From contig NZ_JAQTUH010000002.1 in assembly GCF_028710345.1 (NCBI RefSeq), positions 186,001-250,000 of the forward strand: a stretch of DNA of 64,000 bases. The letters are read 5' to 3'. The notes beneath the pieces were generated by a model. The model had not been told where the DNA came from. It saw only the letters and a list, made by a program, of their open reading frames with translations, and did not search any database. Source of the DNA: Sulfuricurvum sp. (GTDB lineage Bacteria > Campylobacterota > Campylobacteria > Campylobacterales > Sulfurimonadaceae). Below are positions 48,433 to 55,178 of the stretch, one piece after another; position 1 is the stretch's first letter, and the number at the start of each line of letters is the position of its first letter. Position numbers and translations under genes: made by a program.

Positions 48433-48711
48433 ATGAGTGATAAACACGATATCTTAGCAGAGACACAATCGATTATCGTCCCTGATGAATCAATGGGATT
48501 ACGATTTTTGATAAATGTGGGGATGGGAATATTTTTAATCTTGATGGTGGCATTCCCCAAAATTTTTATCCAGACACAAATCTATTTTAAAAGCCGCGAA
48601 ATTTCAACACTCAGCCGTGAACATGATGCTCTAAAAGAAGAGAATCGTATTATCCGCGCCAAAGTAGAACAGATGGTCTACAAAAATAAAATACTTGATA
48701 CGTTGTTTTAA
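48433..48711 (+). CDS. FtsL-like division protein
   Basis: 92 residues: cytoplasmic N-terminus, one TM helix (FLINVGMGIFLILMVAF), then a coiled coil (about 55-85, EISTLSREHDALKEEN). Topology, size and position 7 bases after rsmH match FtsL, which joins FtsB and FtsQ in the divisome. FtsL is poorly conserved, so the call rests on context. Confidence 0.65.
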   Translation: MSDKHDILAETQSIIVPDESMGLRFLINVGMGIFLILMVAFPKIFIQTQIYFKSREISTLSREHDALKEENRIIRAKVEQMVYKNKILDTLF

Positions 48712-48724
48712 GTAGGAAAAAAAA

Positions 48725-48751
48725 GGTCGAGGGGTAATTAATCCCTCGACC
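48725..48751 (-). terminator. Hairpin with T-run on the minus strand
   Basis: GGTCGAGGG and CCCTCGACC, a perfect 9-bp stem with a 9-base loop. Read leftward it is followed by eight T residues, so it would stop minus-strand transcription entering the FtsL-like gene. Confidence 0.65.
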
Positions 48752-48929
48752 ACTGCCACTCCATCAAATCAATAGAAAAGCTGTACTTGCAAAAGAAATT
48801 ATAACACAATCGATATGAAATTTATCTCTTTTTGGAACTTATTTTTCTCATTTGCACTAAGCTCAAGGAAATATCGCTTCACGAGGAAAAAGAGGATAGA
48901 AGGATATTAAACGCTTAGAAAAAAGGTAA

Positions 48930-48948
48930 AAAAGTGTCCGGCACTTTT
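48930..48948. repeat. Family D palindrome
   Basis: AAAAGTG-TCCGG-CACTTTT. A partial copy (TTCGGCACTTTTATGCTT) lies at 49392-49411. Both look like debris of small insertion elements. Confidence 0.55.
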
Positions 48949-49057
48949 ATGTTTATGCTTTTGTAAATTGTATTTTAGTACGGGACAAGCAAGAATACTA
49001 GAACGAATCAGCCGTGAGATGAAAATCGGCATATTTTGTGGTTACTAAAATTTACGG

Positions 49058-49063
49058 TATAAT
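49058..49063 (+). promoter_or_regulatory. -10 box of the 49070-49149 RNA
   Basis: TATAAT; a TTGTGG 16 bases upstream is a weak -35. Transcription would begin near 49070. Confidence 0.55.
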
Positions 49064-49069
49064 TTCTTG

Positions 49070-49149
49070 TACAGCAATGATAGTCCTCTTTCCGTCTGAT
49101 TAACGGATAGAAAAATGTGGCGAGGTAGAAATACCTCGCCTTTTTTTTT
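49070..49149 (+). ncRNA. Candidate small RNA with its own promoter and terminator
   Basis: Between a clean -10 box (49058-49063) and a strong intrinsic terminator (49119-49149) lie about 50 bases with no reading frame. They contain a small hairpin (TCCGT...ACGGA at 49091-49107). Total predicted length about 80 nt. It matches no RNA family I know, such as 4.5S, 6S or tmRNA. Ends are estimates. Confidence 0.55.
49119..49149 (+). terminator. Intrinsic terminator
   Basis: GGCGAGGTA-GAAA-TACCTCGCC, a perfect 9-bp stem with a GAAA tetraloop, followed by nine T residues. Confidence 0.9.
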
Positions 49150-49465
49150 GCCAATTTTTTGGCAGGTAGGGTGGATGTGGGTAGCATTTCTCAAACGGAG
49201 GGCTATTTAATTGTTGTTACGCCTATGGATAGTATTTTTGGTGTTGATGGTGCTTGCACCTGCTCTGCATTAATCAAAAACGAGGGATTAATCACCCCTC
49301 GGACTATCCTCTTCTCTTTTTTACTCTCGCGGGATTGTCCCTAACTGTTTTTCTCCTTTGACCTCGTGACAGTAGCCCAATGGATTGAAGGTATTCGGCA
49401 CTTTTATGCTTCATATATCCAAAAAAACTGGGACGAATTAACATTTTACGCCAGACCCCTATGAC

Positions 49466-49584
49466 TTGTCGAAGGGTAACGGAATATCTTACGTCATTCC
49501 CGATTTGATCGGGAATCCAGCTCTTTCTTCCCTCCCTCTTTTCCGCTATAATCTAAAAAAACAAAAAATCAATGTATAAGTTTT
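49466..49584 (+). repeat. Promoter-bearing direct repeat, copy 1
   Basis: About 119 bases: TTGTCGAAGGGTAACGG, a family A palindrome (49492-49522), a pyrimidine tract, TATAAT at 49547-49552 and AT-rich leader. It repeats at 50254-50372 with a constant offset of 788 bases and about five mismatches. Confidence 0.9.
49547..49552 (+). promoter_or_regulatory. -10 box in direct repeat copy 1
   Basis: TATAAT 60 bases before the gene at 49612; -35 region weak (TTTCTT at 17-base spacing). Confidence 0.6.
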
Positions 49585-49611
49585 GATATTGAGCCATAAA
49601 ATCGTGAATCG

Positions 49612-50028
49612 ATGAATACAGAAATCATCCATTTTTTTCATACATTGCCAAAAGATGATGACGGTCATTTTATTATCGGTATGATTGATAAAATCATTAT
49701 CGATACCATCAATGCCAAAGTCTCCTATGCGGTGGTTAGCGAAGTTAGTTTGATCAAAAATCTAAACCATCACGGAGATTTGGATATTGTTGATTACAAG
49801 AAGCTCTCAAACATTGTAATGAATCATCATGTTGTTGTCCAAGACGGCGAAAAAACGGTAGGTGTTGTCCATATCGAAGAGGAAAAATACTATTTTGCTC
49901 TCAAAGCAACGGCATCAGGAGAGACGGTTTTTTTAACGTCGTTTAGAAAAACAAGCGATTTGGATTTGAAACGGTTGAAGAAAAAAGTGGAAAAGAAAAA
50001 AGCTATTTTGATTTTTGGAAGTTTGTGA
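49612..50028 (+). CDS. Small protein, unknown (possible nuclease-like fold)
   Basis: 138 residues, no signal or membrane segment. The N-terminal half has IIGMIDKIIIDTIN and a histidine pair (NLNHHGDLDIVD); the C-terminal half (HVVVQDGEKTVGVVHIEEE, YYFALKATASGETVFLTSF, then a lysine-rich end) has the beta-hairpin plus S-F-R-K outline of BECR-type (RelE/barnase-like) nucleases found in phage and toxin contexts. This is a weak resemblance only. The gene sits alone between promoter-bearing direct repeats, and a structured RNA starts two bases after its stop. Confidence 0.6.
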   Translation: MNTEIIHFFHTLPKDDDGHFIIGMIDKIIIDTINAKVSYAVVSEVSLIKNLNHHGDLDIVDYKKLSNIVMNHHVVVQDGEKTVGVVHIEEEKYYFALKATASGETVFLTSFRKTSDLDLKRLKKKVEKKKAILIFGSL

Positions 50029-50030
50029 AG

Positions 50031-50123
50031 CCAAAAGGCGAAGGACTCTCATCCCCTTCTAAGACCCGTTCCTAATTAAAGGCGGTACGGCCGAGAGATT
50101 CACCGCGTCTTCCTTTTGGTATC
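50031..50123 (-). ncRNA. Candidate structured small RNA, unassigned family
   Basis: The outer ends pair: CCAAAAG at 50031-50037 with CTTTTGG at 50113-50119, extended by GAAG with CTTC. Inside, CTCTC (50046-50050) pairs with GAGAG (50093-50097), and GGCGGT (50081-50086) with ACCGC (50101-50105 region read as its complement), so a pseudoknot-like fold is possible. On the minus strand an extended -10 (TGCTATAAT, 50138-50130) lies 7 bases before the 5' end. No reading frame. It does not match riboswitch or housekeeping RNA consensus sequences that I could recall. Strand is inferred from the promoter. Confidence 0.5.
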
Positions 50124-50129
50124 GGTAAA

Positions 50130-50138
50130 ATTATAGCA
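50130..50138 (-). promoter_or_regulatory. Extended -10 promoter for the minus-strand RNA
   Basis: TGCTATAAT read leftward, with TTGTAA about 19 bases upstream as a possible -35. Confidence 0.5.
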
Positions 50139-50202
50139 TATTAGTAATAAAACGTTACAAAAATATAGACAGAGTCCGCAGATGTTTCATTTTTCGATTC
50201 AC

Positions 50203-50268
50203 CGTTCGCCCTGAGCTCAAGGAAACATCGCTCCGCGAGCGGTACCCTTGTTTTGTCGAAGGGTAACG
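50203..50268. repeat. Family C repeat
   Basis: GTTCGCCCTGAGCTCAAGG at the 5' end and TTGTCGAAGGGTAACGG at the 3' end, with a CGCTCCGCGAGCGG hairpin in the middle. Confidence 0.65.
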
Positions 50269-50372
50269 GAATATCTTTCGTCATTCCCGACTTAATCGGG
50301 AATCCAGCTCTTTCCTCCCTCCCTCTTTTCCGCTATAATCTAAAAAAACAAAAAATCAATGTATAGGTTTTA
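50254..50372 (+). repeat. Promoter-bearing direct repeat, copy 2
   Basis: Copy of 49466-49584, including the family A palindrome (50280-50310) and TATAAT at 50335-50340. It lies immediately before the ATPase operon. Confidence 0.9.
50335..50340 (+). promoter_or_regulatory. -10 box in direct repeat copy 2
   Basis: TATAAT 37 bases before the leader ATG (50377) and 87 before the ATPase start. Confidence 0.6.
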
Positions 50373-50376
50373 GATA

Positions 50377-50427
50377 ATGAAACAGTATGATGCTTTTGAT
50401 TTGAAGAATAGTGGAAAGGGTAAATAA
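50377..50427 (+). CDS. 16-residue leader peptide overlapping the ATPase start
   Basis: ATG at 50377 opens MKQYDAFDLKNSGKGK; its TAA shares one base with the ATPase ATG (TAATG). The ATPase ribosome site (GGAAAGGG) lies inside it. It may be a coupling leader, or the fused start and end of an internally deleted gene. Confidence 0.4.
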   Translation: MKQYDAFDLKNSGKGK

Positions 50428-52592
50428 TGCAAAAAGTAAAGATTCACTTTGAAAATTGCTATGGTATTAAAAAATTATTATATGACTTTGATTTTTCAAG
50501 TAAAAAAATATATTCCATCTATGCTCCCAATGGAACAATGAAAACATCATTTGCAAAAACAATGTTTGACTTTTCAGAAAGTAAAGATTCAAAAGACTTG
50601 ATTTTTCCAGAACGATTGCCTATTAGAACAATTCAAGATGAAAATGGTACGGATTTATTATCTCAGAATATTTTTGTAATCGAACCATACAATCCTAATT
50701 ACAGTTCAGATAAATTATCAACATTGGTAGTGAAAAAAGAATTAAAAGATAGATATGATGCGATATATAAAGATTTAGAAACTGCTCAGAAAGAGTTTAT
50801 CAAAAAATTAAAAACTGTATCGCAAAGCTCAGATTGTGAATCAGAATTTATTGATACTTTTCAAGAAAATCATAAAGAAACTTTTTTTGACTTACTAATC
50901 AAAATCAAGCCAAAACTTGCAGAAGATATGACAATAGATTATGAATTTAAATATAACGATGTATTCGATAAAAAGGGGAATGTCAAAAAGTTTTTAGATA
51001 ACAATATTGATTCTCTTGATGAGTATATAAAACAATATGAAAGTTTATTGTCCGAGTCAACGTTCTTCAAAAAATCTACAAATACATTTGGAACATACCA
51101 AGCAAATGAAATCATTAATTCGGTAAAAGACAATTCATTCTTTGATGCTGGACATTCAATAGAACTTAACGATGCAACAAAGATAAGTTCAGTAAATGAG
51201 TTTGAAAAACTTGTAAATGATGAAATACAAAAAATTTTGAATGATTCAAAGCTAAAAAAAGCATTTGAAAAAATCGATCAAGCAATAGGAAAAAATACTG
51301 AATTAAGAAATTTCAAAATAGCTTTGGAAAAAAACAATGCATTGATTATCGAATTAAAAAATTATGATGCTTTTAAACAAAAAGTTTGGCTGACATATTT
51401 TTCAAATTTATACAACGATGTTGCAACTTTATGGGACTTGTACAATACAAGAAAAGAAGAATTGGAAATGATAATTCGAGAGGCAGTGAGTACAAAAACT
51501 GACTGGGAAAAAGCAACAAAAGAGTTCAATGAGCGGTTTAGAGGAGTACCATTTAGATTAGAAATAGAAAATCAAGATGATGTTATTTTAAAAACAAGTG
51601 CACCGTCTTTAAAATTCGTATTTACAGATTCAGGTGATGAAAAGCATATTGAAAAAGATGAGTTGCTAAAAGTCTTAAGTCAAGGAGAAAAAAGAGCTTT
51701 ATATCTTTTAAATATTGTTTTTGAAATACAAGCACGGAAAAAACTAACTCAAGAGACAGTCTTTGTAATAGATGATATTGCAGACTCCTTTGATTATAAA
51801 AACAAGTACGCAATCATTGAGTATTTAAAAGATATAGCTCAAGAGCCAAATTTTTATCAGATTATTTTGACGCATAATTTTGATTTTTTCAGAACTATCG
51901 GAAGTAGATTGAGTATTGATAGACAGCATAGACTTTATACTATCAAATCAGATGTAGAAGTCAATTTGGTACAAGAAAAATATCAAAAGAATCCTTTTGA
52001 ATATTGGATCAAAAACATTAATAGCGATACTAACTTTTTGATTGCGCTAATTCCTTTTGTAAGAAATCTAACAGAATATACAAATGGGGTGTCATCAAAT
52101 ACAGATTATGATACATTGACTGAGCTTTTACATATCAAAGGGAACACCTTAAATATTACTAATCAAGATTTAACATCAATTTTTGGTAGAGTTGTACCAT
52201 CAATCACATCAAATATAGATTCAACAAAAGTTATTGATACGGTTTTTAATTGTGCAGAGACAATTTCTGCGGAAACAACACATACAGAAGTAAATCTGGA
52301 GAAAAAAATAGTTTTATCCATTGCAACAAGATTGAAAGCTGAACAATTTATGATTGATAAGATCAATAATCCAAGTATGGTAAATAGCATTAGTGGTAAT
52401 CAAACATTCGAGCTTTTTAATATTTACAAAAATAATTTCTCGACAGAACAAAATAATATTGAATCATTGGATAAAGTGAATTTGATGACTGCTGAGAATA
52501 TTCATTTAAACTCATTTATGTATGAACCATTGTTGGATATGTCAGATAGTCATTTAAAAGCTTTGTATTTAGAAATAAAAAATTTGGTATAG
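50427..52592 (+). CDS. AAA/ABC-type ATPase, RloC/PrrC-related class, putative defence
   Basis: 721 residues, no membrane segment. SMC/ABC-like ATPase split by a coiled region: P-loop APNGTMKTS at 33-41 (a nonstandard form with methionine before K39), ABC signature LSQGEKRAL from residue 417, Walker B VFVIDDIADS at about 445-454 with aspartate in place of the usual glutamate, and H-loop ILTHNFDF. The C-terminal 190 residues are helical with no recognised nuclease motif. Similar single ATPases occur in abortive-infection loci. The gene is markedly AT-rich compared with its neighbour, a sign of transfer. The DUF2130 gene follows after 7 bases with AGGA. Confidence 0.75.
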   Translation: MQKVKIHFENCYGIKKLLYDFDFSSKKIYSIYAPNGTMKTSFAKTMFDFSESKDSKDLIFPERLPIRTIQDENGTDLLSQNIFVIEPYNPNYSSDKLSTLVVKKELKDRYDAIYKDLETAQKEFIKKLKTVSQSSDCESEFIDTFQENHKETFFDLLIKIKPKLAEDMTIDYEFKYNDVFDKKGNVKKFLDNNIDSLDEYIKQYESLLSESTFFKKSTNTFGTYQANEIINSVKDNSFFDAGHSIELNDATKISSVNEFEKLVNDEIQKILNDSKLKKAFEKIDQAIGKNTELRNFKIALEKNNALIIELKNYDAFKQKVWLTYFSNLYNDVATLWDLYNTRKEELEMIIREAVSTKTDWEKATKEFNERFRGVPFRLEIENQDDVILKTSAPSLKFVFTDSGDEKHIEKDELLKVLSQGEKRALYLLNIVFEIQARKKLTQETVFVIDDIADSFDYKNKYAIIEYLKDIAQEPNFYQIILTHNFDFFRTIGSRLSIDRQHRLYTIKSDVEVNLVQEKYQKNPFEYWIKNINSDTNFLIALIPFVRNLTEYTNGVSSNTDYDTLTELLHIKGNTLNITNQDLTSIFGRVVPSITSNIDSTKVIDTVFNCAETISAETTHTEVNLEKKIVLSIATRLKAEQFMIDKINNPSMVNSISGNQTFELFNIYKNNFSTEQNNIESLDKVNLMTAENIHLNSFMYEPLLDMSDSHLKALYLEIKNLV

Positions 52593-52599
52593 GAAAAAT

Positions 52600-53865
52600 A
52601 TGTCATCACAAACCACTATTCAATGTCCAAAATGCGGCACACAAATCGATGTAAACGAAATCCTCTATCATCAACTCGAAGCTCAGATGAAGAGCAAGTT
52701 TGATAGTGAAGTTGACGAACATCGTAAAAAGTACAAAGCGGCTATGGATGAGTTCAAAGCCAAAGAAGAAGCGTTCAAAGATCAGCAAGAAAAGTTCGAT
52801 GAAAAGCTCCGAGATGGCGTATCAACTCAGCTCAAAGTAGAACGCCAAAAACTATCCGACACCCTCAAAAAACAGATTCTCGATGAACAAAGCGAATCAA
52901 TGGCGCTACTCCAAAAAGAGTTAGCCGAAAAATCCGAGCAGGTCAAAGAGCTGAACCGCTCAAAAGCCGAAATCGAACAGCTCAAACGCGCAATAACCGA
53001 AGCCGAAGAGGTGGCAAAGCTCAAAGCCGAACAGGTGTTAACTGAACGCCTCAAAGAGGAAAAAGAGAAGATTCACAAACTGGTCGATGAACAAAACGAA
53101 CTCAAACTCAAAGAGAAAGACAAACAGCTCGAAGATCAAAAAAAGCTCATCGAAGAGATGAAGCGCAAAGCCGAGCAGGGCAGTATGCAGATGCAAGGAG
53201 AGGTGCAAGAACTCGCCATCGAAGAGTGGTTGATGGCACAGTATCCGTTTGATTCAATCGAAGAGATCAAGAAAGGTCAGCGAGGCGGTGACTGTATCCA
53301 GAGTGTTCATACACGCGAGATGCAAAATTGCGGAACGATCTATTACGAGAGCAAGCGGACAAAAGATTTTCAATCTACATGGATCGAAAAGTTTAAAGCC
53401 GATATGCGTGATCGTGGAGCAGACATCGGGGTATTGGTCACTAGCACGATGCCAAAAGATATGAGTCGCATGGGATTGCTCGATGGGGTATGGGTGTGTA
53501 CTTACGAGGAGTTCAAAGGGTTGTCGATGGTGTTGCGTGAAAATGTCATACGTATGGCAAGGGCATTACTCTCCGAAGAGAACAAAACCGACAAGATGAC
53601 AATGCTATACAGTTTCCTGACCAGTAATGAGTTCAAGATGCAGATCGAAGCAATCGTTGAAGGGTTCAGCCAAATGCAGGCGGATTTGGACTCTGAGCGA
53701 CGGGCAATGCAACGGATTTGGAAACAGCGGGAAAAACAGATCAATAAAGTTCTCGAAAACACAACGGGGATGTATGGATCGATTCAGGGGATTGCGGGGA
53801 ATGCTATTGGGAGTATTAAGGCGCTTGAATTACCCTATAGTGGGGAAGATGAAGAGGAAAATTGA
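52600..53865 (+). CDS. DUF2130 protein, PD-(D/E)XK nuclease-like
   Basis: 421 residues. N-terminal zinc-ribbon half (C9-PK-C12), a long charged coiled coil (about 25-200), then the DUF2130 core: GEVQELAIEEWL, GGDCIQ with D231, and YYESKRTKDF with E250-S-K252, spaced as in a PD-(D/E)XK active site. The C-terminus is helical. The family is thought to belong to the restriction-endonuclease-like fold; substrate unknown. Composition is closer to the chromosome than the ATPase gene, so the pair may have been assembled from different sources. Confidence 0.8.
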   Translation: MSSQTTIQCPKCGTQIDVNEILYHQLEAQMKSKFDSEVDEHRKKYKAAMDEFKAKEEAFKDQQEKFDEKLRDGVSTQLKVERQKLSDTLKKQILDEQSESMALLQKELAEKSEQVKELNRSKAEIEQLKRAITEAEEVAKLKAEQVLTERLKEEKEKIHKLVDEQNELKLKEKDKQLEDQKKLIEEMKRKAEQGSMQMQGEVQELAIEEWLMAQYPFDSIEEIKKGQRGGDCIQSVHTREMQNCGTIYYESKRTKDFQSTWIEKFKADMRDRGADIGVLVTSTMPKDMSRMGLLDGVWVCTYEEFKGLSMVLRENVIRMARALLSEENKTDKMTMLYSFLTSNEFKMQIEAIVEGFSQMQADLDSERRAMQRIWKQREKQINKVLENTTGMYGSIQGIAGNAIGSIKALELPYSGEDEEEN

Positions 53866-53910
53866 ATGAATACTAAAAACGAATCAGCCGTGTCTCTCAT
53901 CATTTCAACC

Positions 53911-53939
53911 TTGACTTTTATATGCTATTAAACTAAAAT
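53911..53939 (+). promoter_or_regulatory. Sigma70-type promoter
   Basis: TTGACT at 53911-53916, 17-base spacer, TAAAAT at 53934-53939. It leads to the gene at 54017. Confidence 0.7.
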
Positions 53940-54016
53940 CACCAGATATTAATGTAATCAATGCAAATGGTGGTATTTAAATAAATGAATCTATTAAAGA
54001 CTTTGAAAATATCCAA

Positions 54017-54667
54017 ATGACTAAATTATCTGATGCTAGTAAACTATTTATTATAACAGCTGTGGTTTTTGTTTCCGTATACATTTACAGAAACTACTTC
54101 TCTAATGAAGATTATTCAGTACCGAAATATATCACATTTAAAAAATCAATCATAGAAAATGCGACTTTTAAAAACAATACTGACGATAGTGGCAAGCTAA
54201 AGCAATTAGCCCAAGAGATTACTGCTCCTTGTAATCATGTTGAAAATTGTGAGATAGAAAGCATTTATAAATACGTTACAAAAATACCTTATTACGCTGG
54301 TGATACTACCGTAAAAACACCTGTTGAAGTGCTCTCAACCAATAGTGGAGATTGTGATGAAAAATCATTTTTGATGGCAACATTGCTAAAAGAAAAAAAG
54401 CATACCTCAGTATTAATATTTACGAAACAAAATGAAACTTATCACACATTTTTAGGGGTAGCAATAAAAAATGATCAGTCACTAAATCACAATAGTACCT
54501 TTTTAAAAGTTGGTGACCAAAAGTATTATTATGCAGAAACAACGCAGAGTGTATGGGAAATAGGGGATTTTAATGGGGTTGAACAAAAAGATATTGTAGG
54601 AATCTATGATGTAGAGAACAATAAAAATATATCACTAAAAAAAGTGGAATTAGTAAAAAACTCTTAG
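54017..54667 (+). CDS. Transglutaminase-like cysteine protease, membrane-anchored
   Basis: 216 residues. One N-terminal TM helix (LFIITAVVFVSVYIY) places the rest outside the cytoplasm. The catalytic cysteine is C113 in NSGDCDEKSFLMATLL, with a histidine about 28 residues later (TYHTFLGV) and an acidic residue in YYYAETTQ: the transglutaminase-like fold. No clear ribosome site. AT-rich and preceded by its own promoter, so probably an accessory gene separate from the DUF2130 operon. Confidence 0.75.
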   Translation: MTKLSDASKLFIITAVVFVSVYIYRNYFSNEDYSVPKYITFKKSIIENATFKNNTDDSGKLKQLAQEITAPCNHVENCEIESIYKYVTKIPYYAGDTTVKTPVEVLSTNSGDCDEKSFLMATLLKEKKHTSVLIFTKQNETYHTFLGVAIKNDQSLNHNSTFLKVGDQKYYYAETTQSVWEIGDFNGVEQKDIVGIYDVENNKNISLKKVELVKNS

Positions 54668-54729
54668 CTGGATTTTGTGTCAAGCATGGAATGAACGAAT
54701 ATGCTAATTCCCCTTTATTTTCATTATGC

Positions 54730-54735
54730 TATAAT
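54730..54735 (+). promoter_or_regulatory. -10 box of the isoprenoid-haem operon
   Basis: TATAAT 24 bases before the first gene (54759), with TG one base upstream of it in the ATGCTATAAT context. Confidence 0.6.
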
Positions 54736-54758
54736 CGCCCTTTTAATCTTGGAGTCTA

Positions 54759-55178
54759 ATGACAAGAGTTTTACTTCTTATTATTAGTATGGTTTTTTCC
54801 CTCTATGGAGCTCCATGGCGAGAGATGAAAAGTTTTCATCTCAAAAAAGATGAAATAGGAAAAGTTCTCATCAAAACATCGTCACCTAAGATGGAACGCG
54901 TTTTACAATGGCGGTGGACGCTTTATACCGATAAAGCGTTGATCGTTCATGAAAAATATGATCGTATTGTGGGTCAGCATGTTTTATCCCTTGGGCGTAA
55001 CGATAGTTTTCGTAAGCGTCTTTTGAATGCGAATCGAAATGAGAACGATGTCCCCTATGCGGTGGTTGTTTTTAAAAAGTTTGATGATATCAATAAAAGT
55101 GCACAGTTTGATTTGCTGATTATTGATAAAGAGACAAGAATTTTAGTGGATTATTTGGGCAAGGAAGAGAAAAAATAA
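54759..55178 (+). CDS. Exported protein, unknown, first gene of the operon
   Basis: 139 residues with a signal peptide (MTRVLLLIISMVFSLYG). The mature part is beta-rich with a basic core (MERVLQWRWTLYTDKALIV). GGAG is close to the ATG. Its stop overlaps the polyprenyl synthase start (TAATG). No family recognised. Confidence 0.7.
   Translation: MTRVLLLIISMVFSLYGAPWREMKSFHLKKDEIGKVLIKTSSPKMERVLQWRWTLYTDKALIVHEKYDRIVGQHVLSLGRNDSFRKRLLNANRNENDVPYAVVVFKKFDDINKSAQFDLLIIDKETRILVDYLGKEEKK

What the first reader, a model, noticed from the sequence alone, without database searches (positions are those of the whole stretch)
50427..53865. Two-gene ATPase plus DUF2130 nuclease-like module, possible undescribed defence system
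A 721-residue RloC/PrrC-class ATPase with nonstandard P-loop (APNGTMKTS) and Walker B is separated by 7 bases from a DUF2130 protein with a PD-(D/E)XK-like D231...E250-S-K252 pattern and zinc ribbon. The ATPase gene is AT-rich while its partner is not. The pair is transcribed from a promoter carried by a duplicated repeat, in a region of mobile debris. An ATPase sensor plus nuclease effector is a common architecture of anti-phage systems, but I know of none with this pair.
Basis: partly seen in the sequence, partly recalled or inferred. Interest (0 to 1): 0.7.

Follow-up and report, generated by a model that had tools for sequence, protein, structure and literature searches.

The report
DUF2130 nuclease with swappable ATPase partners
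A little-studied bacterial protein that looks like a DNA-cutting enzyme sits here next to a suspected anti-virus ATPase, and in related bacteria close copies of it sit next to quite different anti-virus genes, which suggests a shared, plug-in part of several defence systems that has not been described.

Summary
The two genes are real, intact and 7 nt apart. The ATPase is not new: it matches PADLOC's single-gene candidate PDC-S46 end to end and occurs alone in all 30 sampled loci outside Campylobacterota. It has a Rad50/SMC-type head plus a conserved, unmatched helical C-terminal domain. DUF2130 is a long coiled coil with a conserved PD-(D/E)XK nuclease core; structure prediction supports this. 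The pair recurs in the same order in a Sulfurimonas-type genome (11 nt) and in reverse order in another genus (0 nt, ATPase frameshifted), so it is not a one-off. But it is not an obligate two-gene system either. The window's DUF2130 is 94% identical to one partnered by a TrlF-like ATPase. Others adjoin RloC, GHKL+PemK, Gabija, DUF4297-HerA or type IIG R-M. In one genus, all 16 genomes examined at one site carry DUF2130 followed by either RloC or TrlF. On a DUF2130 tree, partner types PDC-S46, RloC and TrlF require at least 3, 4 and 5 changes. Best reading: DUF2130 is a constant nuclease-like accessory with exchangeable, probably translation-poisoning ATPase partners. The coupling mechanism is inferred; nothing has been tested biologically.

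The parts
48712..54758 (.). Insertion (about 6.05 kb) carrying the pair, between ftsL-like gene (48433-48711) and the 139-aa gene (54759-55178)
   Evidence: In most of 12 same-genus genomes the two flanking genes are about 50-400 bp apart or separated by one small gene; L113 holds a different insert at the same place
49466..49584 (+). Direct repeat, copy 1, upstream of the 138-aa ORF
   Evidence: 119-nt family, reference copy
50253..50371 (+). Direct repeat, copy 2, 55 nt upstream of the ATPase start codon
   Evidence: 96% identical to copy 1; no other long copy in the genome; promoter not established
50427..52592 (+). PDC-S46 family ABC-type ATPase, 721 aa
   Evidence: PADLOC PDLC05023, E=8.9e-264, residues 1-720 of 721
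50523..50549 (+). Nonstandard Walker A, A33-P-N-G-T-M-K-T-S41
   Evidence: Conserved across the family
51675..51692 (+). ABC signature LSQGEK (residues 417-422)
   Evidence: L417, S418, G420, E421 invariant in 25 sequences
51759..51797 (+). Walker B and D-loop region around VIDDIADSFDY (residues 445-457)
   Evidence: D449, D450, D453-Y457 invariant in 25 sequences
51999..52589 (+). C-terminal all-helical domain (residues 525-721), candidate effector; invariant R546, E550, H569, K627, R635, E639, N691, H693
   Evidence: Predicted structure; invariant residues; aligned regions of most structural matches end near residue 520
52600..53865 (+). DUF2130 protein, 421 aa: N-terminal CxxC, long coiled coil (helix 18-214), PD-(D/E)XK core (about 194-318), helical C-terminus
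   Evidence: PF09903 E=3.3e-82; predicted structure; VIA Z 10.9 and 10.4 to nuclease folds
53290..53355 (+). Active-site motif D231 ... E250-S-K252
   Evidence: D231, E250, K252 invariant in 26 sequences
49612..50028 (+). 138-aa ORF in the same insertion, no Pfam match
54017..54667 (+). 216-aa ORF in the same insertion, weak transglutaminase-like match
   Evidence: PF01841 E=9.4e-05, at its cut-off

Best explanation
The locus is one instance of a modular defence arrangement. A constant DUF2130 protein (CxxC tip, long coiled coil, PD-(D/E)XK nuclease core) is probably co-transcribed with an exchangeable ATPase that is itself the cell-disabling effector. Here the ATPase is PDC-S46; elsewhere it is RloC, a TrlF-like ATPase, or GHKL ATPase plus PemK toxin. 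Most likely mechanism (inferred): DUF2130 engages foreign or broken DNA, and the Rad50-like ATPase monitors that event or DUF2130's integrity. Its helical C-terminal domain then acts as a toxin, probably an RNase that stops translation, in the way PrrC guards the restriction enzyme EcoprrI. Shown: the gene pair, its recurrence, DUF2130's predicted fold and conserved active site, and the partner swapping. Inferred: physical coupling, the guard logic, RNase activity, anti-phage effect.
For: Recurrence with tight spacing: window 7 nt, G402 11 nt same order, G179 DUF2130-TAA|ATG-ATPase 0 nt reverse order. PDC-S46 carriers have DUF2130 in 7 of 8 genomes versus 88 of 290 others (p=0.0017); PDC-S46, RloC or TrlF together 24 of 39 versus 71 of 259 (p=4e-5). 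Swapping: window DUF2130 is 94% identical to L152, whose partner is TrlF-like at 3 nt; G402 and G389 share the same site and near-identical DUF2130 but carry PDC-S46 versus GHKL+PemK. At the fmt site of genus g18, all 16 genomes examined carry DUF2130 plus either RloC (9) or TrlF (7). Tree: starred branches force at least 3 (PDC-S46), 4 (RloC), 5 (TrlF) changes. Other partners: GajA/GajB, DUF4297-HerA, type IIG R-M. Fold.
Against: PDC-S46 occurs without DUF2130 in 20 plasmid/phage-record loci, one Saccharibacteria locus and 9 viral contigs, and away from it or without it in 6 of 10 Campylobacterota genomes. Most DUF2130 genes have no recognised defence neighbour. Several partner ATPases are broken while DUF2130 stays intact (G179, G068, G427, G428, G045, G136). 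The PDC-S46 C-terminal domain shows no detectable relation to the RloC nuclease domain (hhalign probability 0.3). Shared insertion hotspots could produce part of the adjacency. The adjacency null ignores clustering of defence genes.
Confidence: 0.5

Rival explanations
1. PDC-S46 is a self-sufficient single-gene defence toxin and DUF2130 is an unrelated neighbour. The two meet because defence genes pile up at the same sites and because DUF2130 marks a convenient insertion or recombination point.
For: Solitary in 30 of 30 non-Campylobacterota loci; catalogued as a single-gene candidate (PMC12988326); AT-rich ATPase beside a more GC-rich DUF2130 in every pair measured; DUF2130 next to many unrelated defence genes.
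Against: Gaps of 0-11 nt, same strand, in both orders; exactly one of two alternative ATPases next to DUF2130 in all 16 genomes read at one site; independent gains on the tree; co-occurrence.
Confidence: 0.33
2. One reading: the ATPase is the sensor and DUF2130 the nuclease effector, as in Septu/retron PtuA-PtuB or SbcC-SbcD.
For: PtuA and Rad50 heads are among the best structural matches of the ATPase (Z about 14-15); DUF2130 has a conserved nuclease active site.
Against: The ATPase keeps its own invariant helical C-terminal domain and usually lives without DUF2130; many DUF2130 genes live without any such ATPase; RloC partners already carry a known nuclease domain.
Confidence: 0.12
3. DUF2130 is a general host factor of DNA metabolism (for example end processing or junction cleavage), unrelated to defence.
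For: Present in 33 of 34 genomes of one genus; many copies with no defence neighbour; Holliday-junction resolvases among structural matches.
Against: Patchy elsewhere (20 of 151 family genomes), plasmid- and prophage-borne, repeated defence linkage.
Confidence: 0.05

Closest known systems
PADLOC PDC-S46 (single-gene phage defence candidate)
   Same: The window ATPase matches the model over its whole length, E=8.9e-264
   Different: Catalogued as one gene without partner; I found no paper naming PDC-S46
RloC / PrrC anticodon nucleases (RloC: PADLOC PDC-S06-like, Pfam AAA_13)
   Same: Rad50-like ABC head, Walker B DD, C-terminal domain with conserved R-x3-E, R-M or DUF2130 linkage; RloC itself is a DUF2130 partner in Campylobacterota
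   Different: PDC-S46 lacks a conserved zinc-hook CxxC; its C-terminal domain is not detectably homologous
EcoprrI-PrrC (R-M enzyme guarded by a linked ATPase-tRNase)
   Same: A DNA-acting enzyme linked to an ATPase toxin (PMC2610378)
   Different: No methyltransferase or specificity subunit in the window pair; guard logic not tested
PtuAB (Septu, retron-Eco7/Ec78/Ec83)
   Same: ABC ATPase head plus separate nuclease gene; head fold matches
   Different: PtuB is an HNH nuclease (own knowledge; HNH named in PDB titles of related retrons); DUF2130 is PD-(D/E)XK with a coiled coil, and the ATPase here has its own C-terminal domain
DUF2130 (Pfam PF09903)
   Same: Full membership
   Different: Pfam gives no function; three papers in the library mention the name, none as defence by title and abstract

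Membership tests
PDC-S46 (PDLC05023) | Full-length profile match | tested here: met
   E=8.9e-264, residues 1-720, profile 1-718 of 719
PDC-S46 (PDLC05023) | Anti-phage activity | not testable with these tools
   Candidate status only; PDCs mostly lack experimental validation (PMC12988326)
RloC/PrrC | Rad50-like ABC ATPase head | tested here: met
   hhalign to the RloC cluster prob 96.4, E=1e-9; VIA Z 15.2 to Rad50
RloC/PrrC | Zinc-hook CxxC in coiled-coil insert (RloC) | tested here: not met
   No conserved CxxC in PDC-S46 alignment; present in the RloC cluster
RloC/PrrC | C-terminal ACNase domain with Arg-X3-Glu-X(36-52)-His (RloC) or R320-E324-H356 (PrrC) | tested here: inconclusive
   Two invariant candidates, R546-X3-E550-X18-H569 and R635-X3-E639-X53-H693, neither inside the published spacing (PMC2610378); no profile relation
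PD-(D/E)XK nuclease superfamily (DUF2130) | Conserved D...(D/E)xK residues | tested here: met
   D231, E250, K252 invariant in 26 sequences
PD-(D/E)XK nuclease superfamily (DUF2130) | Restriction-endonuclease-like core fold | tested here: met
   Residues 194-318 of the predicted model: Z 10.9 VC1899, 10.4 McrC, 9.5 Can2, 8.8 Hjc, 8.0 FokI; Foldseek E-values alone are weak
PD-(D/E)XK nuclease superfamily (DUF2130) | DNA cleavage | not testable with these tools
   Needs biochemistry
Septu / PtuAB | HNH nuclease partner (PtuB) | tested here: not met
   Partner is DUF2130, PD-(D/E)XK
Obligate two-gene ATPase-DUF2130 system | The two genes occur together wherever either occurs | tested here: not met
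   PDC-S46 without DUF2130 nearby in 30 loci; DUF2130 without it in most genomes

The most novel reading that the evidence does not exclude
DUF2130 is a general, transferable partner of ATPase-type abortive-infection systems: one nuclease-like adaptor used by several unrelated toxins (PDC-S46, RloC, TrlF-like, GHKL-PemK and perhaps Gabija or HerA), which can be swapped beside it like cartridges.
Probability: 0.4. Interest if true: 0.8.

Novelty: new variant of a known kind. Interest (0 to 1): 0.6.

Why it matters
If true, a protein family without assigned function is a common accessory of several anti-phage systems. RloC has been described as an R-M-free or R-M-linked anticodon nuclease whose trigger is thought to be DNA damage; a standing nuclease-like partner would offer a concrete candidate for how such ATPase toxins sense DNA or are kept silent. 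It also shows that 'single-gene' candidate systems can have lineage-specific partners, which matters when they are tested out of context.

Tried and rejected
(1) Obligate two-gene system: rejected, see membership test. (2) PDC-S46 as an RloC-type anticodon nuclease by homology: head homology found, C-terminal domain comparison gave probability 0.3, and the motif spacings fall outside the published ones, so left as inference. (3) Solved-structure sequence search with the PDC-S46 profile: no match at E<=1. (4) The genome-contig scan with the single ATPase sequence gave only one relative, because exact peptide patterns are poor for this family; the PADLOC model and plasmid tblastn worked better. 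(5) Viral-contig DUF2130 relatives: no PDC-S46, RloC or TrlF neighbours; one sits 14 nt from a type IIG R-M gene. (6) Literature on PDC-S46, and on TrlF with phage: none in the library. (7) Promoter in the repeat: pattern scan not clearly above shuffles. (8) In L043/G192 PDC-S46 and DUF2130 lie 1.3 kb apart with an opposite-strand gene between them, and DUF2130 sits at its usual genus position, so I did not count it as a pair.

Full report
What is there. The window carries an intact 721-aa ORF (50427-52592) and, 7 nt downstream, an intact 421-aa ORF (52600-53865). They lie in a roughly 6.05-kb insertion between an ftsL-like gene and a 139-aa gene. In most of 12 same-genus genomes that I read, these two genes are adjacent or separated by one small gene, in an otherwise conserved rsmH-ftsL-139aa-ispB-hemA-proS order; one relative (L113) has a different insert at the same place (gene names are from my own reading of the sequences). 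A 119-nt repeat occurs twice (96%), 27 nt before a 138-aa ORF and 55 nt before the ATPase. It has no other long copy in the genome, and the promoter scan of the region is not clearly above shuffles.

The ATPase. PADLOC's PDC-S46 model matches it end to end with E=8.9e-264, so the family is already listed as a single-gene phage-defence candidate. PDCs come from a guilt-by-embedding screen and most are untested (PMC12988326). The predicted structure (mean pLDDT 82) has a Rad50/SMC/RecF/PtuA-type ABC head over residues 1-520 (VIA Z 15.8 to an SMC head, 15.2 to Rad50, 14.7 to the retron-Eco7 ATPase). Its P-loop lacks the usual second glycine throughout the family. Residues 525-721 form an all-helical domain with invariant R546, E550, H569, K627, R635, E639, N691 and H693. 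Profile comparison links its head to the RloC cluster (prob 96, E=1e-9) but not its C-terminal domain. The RloC motif is Arg-X3-Glu-X36-52-His and PrrC's triad is R320-E324-H356 (PMC2610378). PDC-S46 offers R-X3-E-X18-H and R-X3-E-X53-H, so a catalytic role is plausible but not shown.

The partner. DUF2130 (PF09903, E=3e-82) has a CxxC at the N-terminus, a coiled-coil helix from about 18 to 214, and a core at 194-318. That core aligns with VC1899, McrC, Can2, Hjc and FokI at Z 8-11. D231, E250 and K252 are invariant in 26 diverse sequences. This meets the sequence and fold tests for a PD-(D/E)XK nuclease. Activity is untested.

Is the pair more than chance? In 298 genomes of the window's class PDC-S46 is in 8 and DUF2130 in 95. 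Seven of the eight PDC-S46 genomes also have DUF2130, against 88 of 290 others (p=0.0017). A family scan added G402 and G421. The pair is adjacent in the window (7 nt), in G402 (11 nt, same order) and in G179 (DUF2130 first, stop and start codons abutting, though that ATPase has a 1-nt frameshift). A random-placement estimate gives about 2e-4 per genome, but defence genes cluster, so this null is too generous. Outside Campylobacterota, 20 plasmid or phage-record loci, one Saccharibacteria locus and 9 viral contigs carry PDC-S46 without DUF2130 in the stretch held (the hosts of the viral contigs are not known to me). Several PDC-S46 genes lie beside restriction or methyltransferase genes (for example L041, L059, L060, L064).

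Partner swapping. The key finding came from reading DUF2130's neighbours. The window's DUF2130 is 94% identical to that of G309 (same genus), which follows a TrlF/Ppl-like ATPase by 3 nt. G402 and G389 share one chromosomal site and near-identical DUF2130 genes, but the upstream gene is PDC-S46 in one and a GHKL ATPase plus PemK/MazF-type gene in the other. G421's close relative has RloC overlapping its start. In genus g18 (DUF2130 in 33 of 34 genomes), all 16 genomes examined at the fmt site have DUF2130 followed by either RloC (9) or TrlF (7); G042 has small genes in between, and several of the ATPases are truncated or split. A plasmid DUF2130 (68% identical to the window's by tblastn) abuts GajA-GajB, another overlaps DUF4297-HerA, and one on a viral contig precedes a type IIG R-M gene. 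On a 95-sequence DUF2130 tree the well-supported branches force at least 3 changes for PDC-S46, 4 for RloC and 5 for TrlF. Rows labelled 'none' there include neighbours I did not annotate. The ATPases are AT-rich beside a more GC-rich DUF2130 in each pair measured.

Interpretation. The data favour DUF2130 as a constant element with exchangeable ATPase-toxin partners. Since PrrC is silenced by a linked restriction enzyme and released when that enzyme is disabled (PMC2610378), the simplest working model is that DUF2130 acts on or senses DNA and the ATPase toxin responds. Broken ATPases next to intact DUF2130 fit a toxin that is lost first, but equally fit an independent DUF2130. The strongest rival is that PDC-S46 works alone and the neighbourhood reflects a shared insertion point. 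The ATPase is a known candidate and nucleases beside ATPase toxins are a known theme, so I rate this a new variant of a known kind. The recurrent, swappable DUF2130 linkage appears undescribed in the library searched, though newer or subscription literature could not be checked.

Noticed in passing
window 48712-54758; L113: The gap between ftsL and the 139-aa gene upstream of ispB is an insertion-prone site: the window holds about 6 kb there and G316 (L113) holds two other genes on the opposite strand.
   Followed up: partly
window 54017-54667: 216-aa ORF with a borderline transglutaminase-like match and low GC, in the same insertion directly downstream of DUF2130.
   Followed up: no
L063 (MT836015.1) and L058 (NZ_OP918264.1): A fecal 'Bacteriophage sp.' record shares the IS21 genes, PDC-S46 and restriction endonuclease block with a Pseudomonas fluorescens conjugative plasmid, so it is probably plasmid DNA rather than phage.
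   Followed up: no
L041, L042 (G045, G153): PDC-S46 sits between a type III-like Res helicase and an Eco57I-type methyltransferase, in the manner of restriction-linked RloC; the G153 copy has an internal stop.
   Followed up: partly
L073-L076: In one genus DUF2130 is followed about 115-132 nt downstream by an AAA ATPase with IetA-type PADLOC matches.
   Followed up: no
L077-L079, L089, L200, L205, L206, L213, L215, L217, L223: A 496-503-aa protein (N-terminus looks membrane-spanning) lies directly upstream of DUF2130 (gaps -14 to 15 nt) in eleven genomes; no PADLOC match, not identified.
   Followed up: no
L155:8669-12843: DUF4297-HerA defence genes run into DUF2130 with overlapping stop and start codons (TGATG).
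   Followed up: partly
   Followed up: no
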